DNA from: Burkholderiales bacterium
GTDB taxonomy: Bacteria; Pseudomonadota; Gammaproteobacteria; Burkholderiales; Burkholderiaceae_C
Assembly: GCA_947462065.1 (NCBI GenBank)
Contig: CANHNO010000004.1
Location: forward strand, 1 to 41,395
Direction: 5' to 3'
Length of the DNA stretch: 41,395 nt
The notes under the pieces are model-generated. The model saw only the letters and a program-made list of their open reading frames with translations, did not search any database and was not told the origin of the DNA. Positions 27,156-36,072 of the stretch are shown here, in pieces. Numbering within the stretch: position 1 is the first letter of the stretch; the number at the start of each line of letters is the position of its first letter. The translations under genes and the position numbers were made by a program.

Positions 27156-27185
27156 CCGAGTCCCAAATCCTTGAAGTCAGCGCGT

Positions 27186-27314
27186 GAGCGCTGTGGCGGG
27201 CCACTGTGTTGCGTTCATGTCCTCCGGGCCGGTTCACCCGCCATTCGCTTCGGCTGAATTTCCGCCGGCCCTCCCCCTTTACTTCACTCCACACAGCGAC
27301 CCACCACAGCGCTC
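27186..27314 (-). repeat. Left copy of a structured intergenic element (element sense on minus strand)
   Basis: 24-nt outer arms 27186-27209 / 27291-27314; conserved blocks 27216-27232 (CATGTCCTCCGGGCCGG) and 27265-27285 (CCGGCCCTCCCCCTTTACTTC) separated by 32 nt. Confidence 0.88.
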
Positions 27315-27372
27315 CAACAATCACCGAAGTGTTCGGGGTTTGAAGGCCCAGCATGCGACAGCGGTGCTGGCC

Positions 27373-27499
27373 GCCGAGGGCGTGGGGTGACCGGCGTAGC
27401 GAAGTAAAGGGGGAGGGCCGGATGGGTCTTGCCGGAAACGCTCGGATCGTGATCCGGCCCGGAGGACATGAGCGAAGCCGGTCACCCCGCGCCCTCGGC
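27373..27499 (+). repeat. Right copy of the same structured intergenic element, inverted
   Basis: 23-nt outer arms 27373-27395 / 27477-27499; conserved blocks 27401-27421 (GAAGTAAAGGGGGAGGGCCGG) and 27454-27470 (CCGGCCCGGAGGACATG) separated by 32 nt; exact reverse complements of the left-copy blocks. Confidence 0.88.
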
Positions 27500-27548
27500 A
27501 GCCTCTCAAAGCCGAGACTGCGTAAGACGCGACGGTGAGATCAGCCGA

Positions 27549-29453
27549 TCACTGGTGCACAGCCGGCCGCACCAGTGCCGGGCGGCCGCCGAAGCGTTTC
27601 AGGATCGATTGCTCAATGCCGGCTGAATCGAGCCCGCAGCGTGACATCAGCACCGCTGGGTCGCCGTGCTCGATGAACTCGTCGGGGAGGCCCAGCACCA
27701 GCACCGGCATCGCGATGCCGGCCTGTTGCAGCGCTTCGAGCACGGCCGAGCCTGCGCCGCCCATCGTGCAGCCGTCTTCAACCGTGACCAACGCATCGTG
27801 CGTGCGCGCCAGCTCGGCGACCAGTGTCACGTCGAGCGGCTTGGCAAATCGCATGTTCGCCACCGTGGCGTCGAGGCGCTCGGCGGCGTCCAGCGCAGCG
27901 TGGAGCAGGGTGCCGAAGGCCAGGATGGCGATACGTTTGCCGTGTGTCCCAGCGATCTGTCCGGATTCGCGGCGCACTTCGCCCTTTCCGAGCGGGATTG
28001 CGGTCATCGCGGTTTGCACCTCGACGCCCACGCCCTTGCCGCGCGGGTAGCGCACAGCGGTCGGGTGATCTTGCAGGAAGGCGGTGTACAGCAACTGCCG
28101 GCACTCGTTCTCGTCGGCCGGTGTCATCACGCTCATGTTCGGGATACAGCGCAGGTAGGCGATGTCGTAGTTGCCTGCGTGCGTTGCGCCATCGGCACCC
28201 ACCAAGCCTGCGCGGTCGAGCGCGAACACCACCGGCAGGTTCTGGATCGCCACGTCGTGGATCAGCTGGTCGTAGCCCCGCTGCAGAAAGGTCGAATAGA
28301 TTGCGACCACCGGCTTCAATCCCTCGCAGGCGATACCGGCTGCGAAGGTCACCGCATGTTGCTCGGCGATGCCGACATCGTGGTATCGATTCGGGAAGCG
28401 GCGCTCGAACTCGACCATGCCTGAGCCTTCGCGCATCGCCGGCGTGATGCCCACCAACCGCTCGTCCTGTACGGCCATGTCGCATAGCCAGCTGCCGAAC
28501 ACCTGGGTGAAGGTTGGCTTGCCCGGTGCCGCGGCCTTGATGCCCACGGCCGGGTCGAACTTGCCTGGCCCGTGGTAGTTGATGGGGTCGTTCTCGGCCA
28601 GCTTGTAGCCCTGGCCCTTCTTGGTGACCACGTGCAGAAACTGCGGCCCCTTCAGGTTACGCAGGTTCTCGAGCGTCGGGATCAGCGCGTCGAGGTCATG
28701 ACCGTCGATCGGGCCGACGTAGTTGAAGCCGAACTCTTCGAAGATCGTGCCTGGCACGACCATGCCTTTGGCATGCGACTCGAAGCGCCGCGCCAGTTCC
28801 AGCAGCGGCGGTGCGTTCTTCAGCACCGACTTCGCGGTGTCGCGAGCATTGGCATAGAAGCGCCCGCTCATCAGCCGCGCCAGGTAGCGGTTGAGTGCGC
28901 CGACCGGCGGTGAGATCGACATGTCGTTGTCGTTCAGGATCACCAGCACGTCGGCACCGGCGACGCCGGCGTTGTTCAGCGCCTCGAAGGCCATGCCAGC
29001 ACTCATCGCGCCGTCGCCGATCACGGCGATCGACTTGCGGTGTTCACCCTTCAGCGCTGCACCGACGGCCATGCCGAGCGCTGCCGAGATCGAGGTGCTG
29101 CTGTGCGCGGTGCCGAAGGTGTCGTATTCGCTTTCATCACGGCGCGGAAAGCCGCTAATGCCGCCGAGCTGTCGCAGTGTGCCCATGCGGTCGCGGCGAC
29201 CGGTCAGGATCTTGTGTGGATAGGTCTGGTGACCGACGTCCCAGACAATGCGGTCGCTCGGCGTCTTGAACACATGGTGCAGCGCGATCGTCAGTTCCAC
29301 CGTGCCAAGGTTCGACGACAGGTGGCCGCCGGTCTGCGAGACGCTGTGCAGCAGGTAGTCCCGCAACTCGTCGGCCAGTGTGTACAGTTCGCTGCGCGAG
29401 AGCCGCCGCACATCGGCGGGTGATTCGATCGATTGGAGTAATGCTTTTTTCAT
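27549..29453 (-). CDS. dxs: 1-deoxy-D-xylulose-5-phosphate synthase
   Basis: [59 protein letters not shown]; start ATG 29453. Confidence 0.98.
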
Positions 29454-29455
29454 CG

Positions 29456-30361
29456 TCAACGGTCCCGTTCCACCACCTTGTCGGCCAACAGGCCCAGCCA
29501 CACCGTGTCGCGCAGCGCCGAGCGTTCCAGCGCCGAGTGCGCCTGATCGCGCAGTTCATGCGCGTGTCGCCGCGCTGCATCCAGCCCCATCAGGCTGACG
29601 TAGGTCGGCTTGTTCGCATCGACGTCCTTGCCAGCCGTCTTGCCGAGCTTGTCTGACGCCTGGGTCACGTCGAGCACGTCATCGATGACCTGAAAGGCCA
29701 GCCCGATCGAATCGCCGTAGACCTCAAGCGCAGACCATGCCGTTGCGTCGCTGTCGCCGCAAGCCGCGCCCATCATCACGCTGGCCCGCAGCAGCGCACC
29801 GGTCTTGCGGTGGTGCATGTCGCGCAGGCTTTGCTCATCGAGCGGCCGACCGACACTCGCCAGATCGATAGCCTGGCCACCCGCCATCCCGGCGTGTCCG
29901 GCCGCGCGAGCAAGCAAGCCACACAACTTCGCCTGCAGGGCCGCAGGAACAGTCGCCTCAGGATTCGACTGTGCGTCAGGGGTCAGCACTTCGAAGGCCA
30001 ACGCCTGCATCGCATCGCCAGCCAGCATGGCTGGCGCTTCGCCAAACTTCACATGGACGGTCGGTTTGCCACGTCGCAGCACGTCGTTGTCCATGCAGGG
30101 CATGTCGTCGTGCACCAGCGAATAAGCGTGGATCAACTCCACGGCACAGGCCGCACGCAGCGAAGCGATGCGCAGGCCACCCACCGCATGCGCTGCGGCC
30201 AAGGTCAACAGCGGCCGGAGGCGCTTGCCTCCATCAAGTACTGCGTAGCGCATGGCGGTACCTAGATGGGCCGGTGCGTCGGCGGGCACCCACTGGCCCA
30301 GGCAGTCTTCCACCGCCGCCAACTGGGCACCTGCCCATGCATTGAAATCAGCAGCTGTCAT
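29456..30361 (-). CDS. ispA: Farnesyl/geranyl diphosphate synthase (polyprenyl synthetase)
   Basis: 301 aa; first Asp-rich motif DDMPCMDND, second DDVLD; between dxs and xseB. Confidence 0.96.
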
Positions 30362-34566: not shown

Positions 34567-36072
34567 GTGGACTGTTCAGCGCAGCAGTCCCCTCAGCCCA
34601 GGCCGCGCATCAGCGCAAGGCGACAGTCGCTGACTTTCGCGCTGCTCCTGTCTCTGCTGATCCACGCGCTGTTGTTGAGCCTGACCGTTGGCGGTCAGGG
34701 TTGGGGTCTCCCAGGGTTCTCATTTCCCTGGCAACAGCGACGGGCCGAGGCCCCCGACCTGCGCATGTTGCTGATACCAGCTCGCGAAAAGGTTGCGGCG
34801 GCAGCGGTGGTCACGGCGGTCGAGCCCTGGCAAGCGACATCGACCACTGCCACCTCCGCGGTGGGCGAGGCACCCCCGGCCCCAGCGACCGAGTCGATTA
34901 CTTCGACGAGCGAATTGACCGTGGCGGTCGAATCGACGTCCGAGCGCGCACCCGAACCCGCGCTGCCGCCACAAGCTGATGTGGCGCCAGCTGCCGCGCC
35001 CGCCCCAGCTGCGTTGCCCTCTGAAGCGCCCAGCGAGGTCGGGCCAGCCACTCCCACGCCGCCGACCGTGATGGCCGTGGAGCAAACCGACATGGCCACG
35101 TGGGTGGTGGCCCCTGCCGCCTCCGCTCCGATAACTGCGTTGGCCGTGGCATCCGCCGCATCAAGTCCGGAAGCCGCTGCATCGGCGCCAACGGAAGTGG
35201 TCGTCGAAAAGCCAGACCCAGCCATGGAACGGGTCGTGGTCGATCCTCTGGCCGAGGAGGCCCAACGACAGGCTCTGTTGTTGGAGGCCGAGCGGCTTGA
35301 GAGTGAACGCAAGGAGGTGGCCCGCCAGGAAGCGCAGCGCGTCGAGAGCGCGAGACTGGAAGCTGAGCGCCAACAGGTTGCGCGACAGGAGTTGGCTCGA
35401 CAAGAGTCTGCTCGCCAGGAAGCTCAGCGGATCGAGAGTGCGCGCGTGGAGACCGAGCGCCAACAAGCGGCACGGCAGCAGGCCGCTCGACAGGAATCCG
35501 AGCGCCAACAAGTCGCGCGACAGGAGGCGGCCCGGCAGGAAGCTGCTCGGCAGGAGGCAGGGCGTCAGGAGGCCGCTCGTGCCGAGGCCGCACGGGACGA
35601 CGCAAGACGCGAAGCCTCGCGGCGCGCGATGGGACGCCAACTGGATGAAGAAGTTGCCCGGCGCGCAGCAGCGTCCGAGGCTGCGAACCTCGCTTCCAGG
35701 CTGGAGCCATCCTCACGCGGTGCGCGTCGAGGCAGGCTGTTCGGGCGCATCGATCCCAATTCCGAGCTCGTGCTTTATGCCGAAGCGTGGGCACGGAAGA
35801 TCGAACTGAACATGACGGTCGATCGCATCCGCGACGTGGCGAAGCGCCCCCACACAGACCCCCTCGTGACGGTGGCCATCCGGAGCGACGGCTCGGTGGA
35901 GTCCGTGACCTTTCTGTTGTCAAGCGGCGTCGCGGAGATGGATGAGGGGATACGACGGATCGTGGAGAGCCTCCTGCCTTATCCGGCGTTCCCGCCAGGA
36001 CTCGCCCGCGAGTTCGATGTGATCGAAATCCGCCGGACGTGGGTCGTTGACACCGCCGTTCGCTTGTATTGA
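34567..36072 (+). CDS. TonB/TolA-like protein with long Arg/Glu/Gln/Ala coiled coil
   Basis: N-terminal TM SLTFALLLSLLIHALLLSLTV, about 120-aa RQEAARQE coiled coil, C-terminal TonB-like domain (VTVAIRSDGSVESVTFLLSSGVAEMDEGIRRIVESLLPYPAFPP). GTG start. Confidence 0.85.
   Translation: MDCSAQQSPQPRPRISARRQSLTFALLLSLLIHALLLSLTVGGQGWGLPGFSFPWQQRRAEAPDLRMLLIPAREKVAAAAVVTAVEPWQATSTTATSAVGEAPPAPATESITSTSELTVAVESTSERAPEPALPPQADVAPAAAPAPAALPSEAPSEVGPATPTPPTVMAVEQTDMATWVVAPAASAPITALAVASAASSPEAAASAPTEVVVEKPDPAMERVVVDPLAEEAQRQALLLEAERLESERKEVARQEAQRVESARLEAERQQVARQELARQESARQEAQRIESARVETERQQAARQQAARQESERQQVARQEAARQEAARQEAGRQEAARAEAARDDARREASRRAMGRQLDEEVARRAAASEAANLASRLEPSSRGARRGRLFGRIDPNSELVLYAEAWARKIELNMTVDRIRDVAKRPHTDPLVTVAIRSDGSVESVTFLLSSGVAEMDEGIRRIVESLLPYPAFPPGLAREFDVIEIRRTWVVDTAVRLY
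35323..35580 (+). repeat. Intragenic degenerate repeat encoding the coiled coil
   Basis: CGCCAGGAAGCKCAGCGS.TCGAGAGYGCG at 35323 and 35413 (90-bp period), followed by shorter CAGGAAGCxGCxCGG units. Confidence 0.7.

What the first reader, a model, noticed from the sequence alone, without database searches (positions are those of the whole stretch)
27186..27499. Compound inverted repeat: two oppositely oriented copies of one structured intergenic element between convergent VOC and dxs genes
CATGTCCTCCGGGCCGG (27216-27232) and CCGGCCCTCCCCCTTTACTTC (27265-27285) recur as exact reverse complements at 27454-27470 and 27401-27421. In both copies the blocks are separated by exactly 32 nt of dissimilar sequence and enclosed by a long outer stem. 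Identical blocks, fixed spacing and a diverged loop imply selection on architecture, not a fresh duplication. Placement at the 3' ends of convergent genes resembles REP/BIME-type elements, but I do not recognise the motif as a named family. No transposase or terminal duplication is visible here.
Basis: partly seen in the sequence, partly recalled or inferred. Interest (0 to 1): 0.85.

Follow-up and report, generated by a model that had tools for sequence, protein, structure and literature searches.

The report
Unnamed paired hairpin repeat in Burkholderiales
The feature is one copy of an apparently undescribed family of large paired hairpins scattered through some Burkholderiales genomes, usually just after genes, whose folded shape evolution preserves; it resembles known bacterial palindromic repeats but has no known mover, tag or function.

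Summary
It is one copy of a dispersed repeat family, unmatched in Rfam and in the papers searched. Two folded units of about 110-140 nt lie in inverted order around a 47-nt spacer, between a VOC gene and dxs. The own genome has about 27 units, 12 of 14 sampled congeners carry them, and they occur patchily in three families of the order (8 of 135 genera sampled). Each unit has a 25-30 bp outer stem, a conserved purine-rich internal loop and an inner stem with a variable end. Across genera 28 of 30 stem pairs show compensatory change. G-U far exceeds A-C (174:23), so the purine strand is the one that folds. A purine-purine pair in the loop is A/G or G/A in 131 of 137 units and never G/G. Paired units are almost always '-/+' and lie 3' of genes, enriched between convergent genes. 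No Y1/RAYT transposase passes the curated cut-off in the genus; there is no GTAG/CGTC tag and the size differs, so it works like REP/BIME but is not a REP. Best reading: a REP/BIME-like repeat with an unknown mobiliser, whose resident copies stay under structural selection, probably as 3'-end RNA. RNA versus single-stranded DNA is unresolved.

The parts
27165..27520 (.). whole compound element (edges approximate)
   Evidence: similarity to other genomic copies fades about 10-17 nt outside the outer stems
27181..27319 (-). unit 1, stem type A; folded (purine) strand is the minus strand
   Evidence: CM R1 hit 142 bits; fold -76.6 kcal/mol, z -7.1
27186..27214 (-). unit 1 outer stem, one arm
   Evidence: pairs with 27286-27314; covarying stem
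27286..27314 (-). unit 1 outer stem, other arm
27272..27285 (-). unit 1 conserved loop strand GAAGTAAAGGGGGA; covarying purine at 27275
   Evidence: near-invariant columns; R-R covariation
27216..27225 (-). unit 1 conserved loop strand GGAGGACATG; covarying purine at 27223
27226..27271 (-). unit 1 inner stem GGGCCGG/CCGGCCC with variable 32-nt loop
27320..27366 (.). central spacer, variable between copies; cargo can lie here in other loci
27367..27505 (+). unit 2, stem type B; folded (purine) strand is the plus strand
   Evidence: CM R1 hit 140 bits; DNA fold z -5.9
27369..27400 (+). unit 2 outer stem, 5' arm
   Evidence: pairs with 27472-27503
27472..27503 (+). unit 2 outer stem, 3' arm
   Evidence: covariation
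27401..27414 (+). unit 2 conserved loop strand GAAGTAAAGGGGGA; covarying purine at 27411
27461..27470 (+). unit 2 conserved loop strand GGAGGACATG; covarying purine at 27463
27415..27460 (+). unit 2 inner stem GGGCCGG/CCGGCCC with variable 32-nt loop
26727..27155 (+). flanking VOC/glyoxalase-fold gene, stop 26 nt before unit 1
   Evidence: Pfam PF00903, E 8e-8
27549..29501 (-). flanking dxs gene (DXP synthase), stop 43 nt beyond unit 2
   Evidence: Pfam PF13292, E 5e-124

Best explanation
This is one resident copy of an unnamed, dispersed, REP/BIME-like palindromic repeat family. SHOWN: the family unit is a hairpin of about 110-140 nt with a long covarying outer stem, an almost invariant purine-rich internal loop (GNAGY-GAAGTAAAGGRGGA / GGRGGACATGA-RCGNA) and a covarying inner stem with a variable end. 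The strand carrying GAAGTAAAGG is the one that folds. Two units are nearly always joined in '-' then '+' order around a variable spacer, just after gene stop codons. Structure is kept within sites shared between species. INFERRED: copies spread, or once spread, as non-autonomous elements by a mobiliser that is not a Y1/RAYT transposase and that I did not find. Once seated, a copy acts as a folded RNA at the shared 3' end of neighbouring genes. Each gene's read-through RNA carries the near unit in pyrimidine form and the far unit in purine form, so the inverted pair gives each convergent transcript one functional purine hairpin near its end, most likely blocking 3' exonucleases and read-through transcription or binding a protein at the purine loop.
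For: Copy number and spread. Structure: 35-pair model 95.6% paired versus 75.6% in shuffles and 39-42% when slid; across genera 28 of 30 pairs with double changes, covariation 0.80 versus 0.23. Strand: G-U 174 versus A-C 23, 57 versus 7 as pair types within orthologous sites, 30 versus 3 in carriers outside the genus. Purine-purine pair: 95 A/G, 35 G/A, 6 A/A, 0 G/G, plus 1 variant (Fisher 4e-27), with A/G-G/A swaps at 7 orthologous unit-sites. Within orthologous sites one-sided changes keep pairing 50 times and break it 20 times. Order '-/+' 41 of 41. Placement: 36 distinct loci, 16 convergent, 18 tandem, 2 divergent, against 10% convergent background, p 5e-8; median gap from stop to unit 49 nt.
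Against: No transcript or protein-binding data. G-T also beats A-C in single-stranded DNA, so RNA is not proven. Gene conversion between copies could restore pairing and swap A/G with G/A without function at the site; one site carries different subfamilies in two species. Several elements lie beyond an ordinary intrinsic terminator, so termination is not their only possible role. Lone units, decayed remnants and empty sites show that copies are dispensable. In some tandem or lone sites the purine strand is antisense to the adjacent gene. No mobiliser was identified.
Confidence: 0.5

Rival explanations
1. Purely selfish DNA: the hairpins are recognition ends of a non-autonomous transposable element (REPIN/MITE-like) processed as single-stranded DNA; resident copies do nothing for the host and sit after genes because that is harmless.
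For: Dispersed, patchy distribution, empty sites and decayed copies, avoidance of divergent (promoter) gaps, strict inverted order like transposon ends, cargo between units in a few loci.
Against: Structure is kept within orthologous sites, which dead relics should not show unless conversion is frequent. No Y1_Tnp in the genus above cut-off; no plasmid or phage hit. No target-site duplication could be defined.
Confidence: 0.3
2. Bidirectional transcription terminator for convergent genes.
For: Placement between convergent stops; at VOC/dxs no strong terminator is found; element-adjacent 3' ends carry an intrinsic terminator less often than convergent controls (4/57 versus 5/14, p 0.01).
Against: No T-tract; no intrinsic terminator is detected in the three elements scanned. 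The comparison is biased by shorter search windows and loses significance with all controls (p 0.12). Some copies follow a normal terminator. A terminator would not need the conserved purine loop.
Confidence: 0.1
3. An att-like integration hotspot: the spacer is a recombination site where accessory cassettes integrate between the two units.
For: Three loci carry cargo genes between a '-' and a '+' unit (L071, L164, L162); in L164 both cargo flanks resemble the full spacer.
Against: Only a handful among dozens of pairs; spacer sequence is not conserved between genera; insertion of DNA between REP dimer partners is already described (PMC3733652); no recombinase family was found in the cargo.
Confidence: 0.05

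Closest known systems
REP / BIME / REPIN (GTAG- and CGTC-tagged palindromes)
   Same: Dispersed intergenic palindromes; inverted pairs with variable spacers, including hetero-pairs; lie downstream of genes, mostly between convergent or unidirectional ORFs (PMC3733652); folded strand with conserved non-paired bases, as in the E. coli REP bulge (PMC8266576).
   Different: Units of about 110-140 nt with 25-30 bp outer stems versus stems of 5-13 bp; large conserved homopurine internal loop; no GTAG/CGTC tag; no RAYT over cut-off in the carrying genus.
MITEs / non-autonomous transposons with terminal inverted repeats
   Same: Short, dispersed, inverted ends, occasional cargo.
   Different: The two ends have unrelated outer-stem sequences and are conserved as folded structures rather than as double-stranded binding sites; no parent transposase or target duplication found.
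Integron attC sites
   Same: Folded single-strand hairpins with a variable terminal part.
   Different: No R/L box sequences seen by eye; nearly always paired and inverted; no cassette array. This comparison rests on memory, not a test.

Membership tests
REP (GTAG or CGTC superfamily) | short palindrome, 20-50 nt, stem 5-13 bp | tested here: not met
   units roughly 90-140 nt with 20-30 bp outer stem against values in PMC3733652 and PMC8266576
REP (GTAG or CGTC superfamily) | conserved terminal GTAG or CGTC tag | tested here: not met
   no such conserved tag beside the stems in the alignments; GTAG inside the window's unit 2 is not conserved
REP (GTAG superfamily) | RAYT (Y1 HUH transposase) in the genome | tested here: not met
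   PF01797: no hit over cut-off in 15 genus genomes; a RAYT since lost cannot be excluded, and CGTC families apparently lack one
BIME/REPIN | two units in inverse orientation with variable linker | tested here: met
   41 of 41 pairs '-/+'; one '+/+' exception L243
BIME/REPIN | intergenic, downstream of genes | tested here: met
   34 of 36 distinct loci have a gene 3' end facing the element
Rfam RNA families | match to a curated covariance model | tested here: not met
   only sub-threshold microRNA chance hits
MITE / TIR transposon | target-site duplication and parent transposase | tested here: inconclusive
   empty sites found but flanks too diverged to define a duplication; only PF01797 was searched as transposase
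Functional 3'-UTR RNA | transcription and effect on mRNA | not testable with these tools
   no expression data available

The most novel reading that the evidence does not exclude
A new class of structured RNA (or single-stranded DNA) module with a homopurine internal loop, in which A-G/G-A exchange, sometimes C-G, is kept by selection. It has been amplified through genomes in inverted pairs by a mobiliser that is not a RAYT, and serves as a 3'-end module for convergent genes.
Probability: 0.35. Interest if true: 0.8.

Novelty: new variant of a known kind. Interest (0 to 1): 0.55.

Why it matters
It adds a repeat family with an unusually large, well-defined core to the REP/BIME kind, in genomes where the transposase that explains REPs was not found. 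That makes two open questions testable: what else can spread palindromic repeats, and whether resident repeats are kept as RNA. The purine-purine covariation is a sharp target for structural work.

Tried and rejected
Rfam match: none. RAYT/Y1 transposase: none over cut-off in the genus. Plasmids, phages and IMG/VR viral contigs: no match. Literature: the core string and several term sets gave nothing relevant. An ORF between units in L071 has no Pfam family over cut-off and nothing that looks like a transposase; cargo in L162 and L164 likewise, apart from an ORC-CDC6-like AAA ATPase, with at most weak PADLOC hits. Flank clustering that included repeat DNA lumped unrelated sites and was redone on coding flanks. 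Target duplications could not be read because most empty sites come from diverged relatives. A G-quadruplex in the GGRGG/GGRGG loop was considered; the nested covariation fits a purine-purine helix at least as well; neither was tested.

Full report
OBSERVATION. The two outer stems are 29 and 32 nt long. The units and the whole region fold much better than shuffled sequence. The flanking genes are a glyoxalase/VOC-fold protein and dxs, converging on the element.

FAMILY. The 331-nt segment gives 45 matches in its own genome, from full copies to fragments. I built a covariance model from 18 units. It finds 27 distinct units in the own genome (the 28th row is a reverse-strand echo), and units in 12 of 14 congeners, in three other genera of the same family and in one genome of another family. 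An exact core pattern in named GTDB contigs hit only MAGs labelled Burkholderiales, Rubrivivax or Rhizobacter. A second, broader model found carriers in 13 of 300 genomes of the order, 8 of 135 genera, in three families. Rfam has no match.

ANATOMY. Read on the purine strand, a unit is: outer stem of about 25-30 bp; two conserved G-A mismatches flanking one covarying pair; loop strands GAAGTAAAGGRGGA and GGRGGACATGA; inner stem of 6-7 bp; terminal loop from a few to about 32 nt. Two stem types, A and B, share the loop but not the stem. In the genus, 23 of 35 pairs show double changes; across genera 28 of 30. By eye, some genera replace the tandem G-A/A-G step next to the outer stem with G-C/A-U, and the next A-U with G-C.

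WHICH STRAND FOLDS. A G-U pair on one strand is an A-C mismatch on the other. In the outer stem the purine strand has 174 G-U and 23 A-C cells, and 30 versus 3 in carriers outside the genus. Counted once per site and column inside orthologous groups it is 57 versus 7. The purine strand is therefore the folded one. This does not separate RNA from single-stranded DNA.

A PURINE-PURINE PAIR. The middle letters of GGRGG and GGRGG are A/G in 95 units, G/A in 35, A/A in 6 and never G/G (Fisher 4e-27; relatedness makes this p too small). Two units have C/G, and two others have A and T at the next position. At seven orthologous unit-sites both A/G and G/A occur. Repeated compensatory change or gene conversion explains this; drift does not.

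ARRANGEMENT. All 41 detected neighbouring pairs are '-' then '+'; one tandem '+/+' pair appears in another family (L243). On either strand the 5' unit is in pyrimidine form and the 3' unit in purine form. In 36 distinct loci, 16 are convergent, 18 tandem and 2 divergent, against 19 of 199 convergent among neighbouring gene pairs in the same loci. Genes were called with a simple codon-usage script, not a standard gene finder. The unit usually begins 30-75 nt after a stop codon.

HISTORY. The dxs copy is shared by at least seven congeners and absent or displaced in more distant ones. In G008 and G004 unit 1 is lost by deletion in its stem region. Other sites are empty (L084, L060 and lysS-like sites), decayed, or carry a different subfamily in a sister species. 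Within orthologous sites, single-sided changes keep pairing 50 times and break it 20 times.

MOBILISER. Y1_Tnp (PF01797) has no hit over the cut-off in 15 genus genomes; two sub-threshold hits exist. Phage, plasmid and viral-contig searches were negative. The REP papers describe the same kind of behaviour (inverted dimers, 3' placement, DNA inserted between partners) but much smaller tagged units. So the family works like REP/BIME and fails REP membership on size, tag and transposase.

MECHANISM. My preferred reading is a REP/BIME-like repeat whose resident copies act as folded 3'-end RNA. Dispersal, folding, strand and placement are shown; RNA action, the benefit to the host and the mobiliser are inferred. 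The strongest rival is a purely selfish single-stranded DNA element with gene conversion between copies. A terminator role is weakly suggested but the controls are small and biased, and some copies lie behind ordinary terminators.

Noticed in passing
L162:1081-3907 (G020): About 2.8 kb between a '-' and a '+' unit encodes an ORC-CDC6-like AAA ATPase with zinc ribbon and a second protein of unknown family.
   Followed up: partly
L164:738-2169 (G013): A 415-aa protein without a Pfam family lies between the two units, and both its flanks resemble the normal spacer, as if the spacer were duplicated.
   Followed up: partly
L071:1657-2103 (G003): 148-aa ORF of unknown family between inverted units about 0.9 kb apart.
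   Followed up: partly
L230:941-1132, L231:995-1186, L241:999-1188, also own-genome L008, L009, L012: A subfamily carries an extra stem-loop insert of about 70 nt exactly inside the conserved internal loop (GGGGGA / CATGA).
   Followed up: no
L053, L006, L055 flanks: The subfamily with the shorter spacer is often flanked by another inverted repeat, GGCCCTTTGCGGTC..TTCGC; this second repeat is absent from the window.
   Followed up: partly
L256 (G007): At the site between an enoyl-CoA-hydratase-like gene and a lysS-like 3' end (both judged by eye), one species has a toxin-antitoxin-like pair where others have the element and G003 has almost no gap.
   Followed up: no
window 35323-35579: Tandem repeats of 30-90 bp.
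   Followed up: no
L003 and L011 (own genome C16 and C196): Two versions of the same locus in the MAG, one with a deletion between two AACGCAACA repeats at the element edge, suggesting strain mixture.
   Followed up: no
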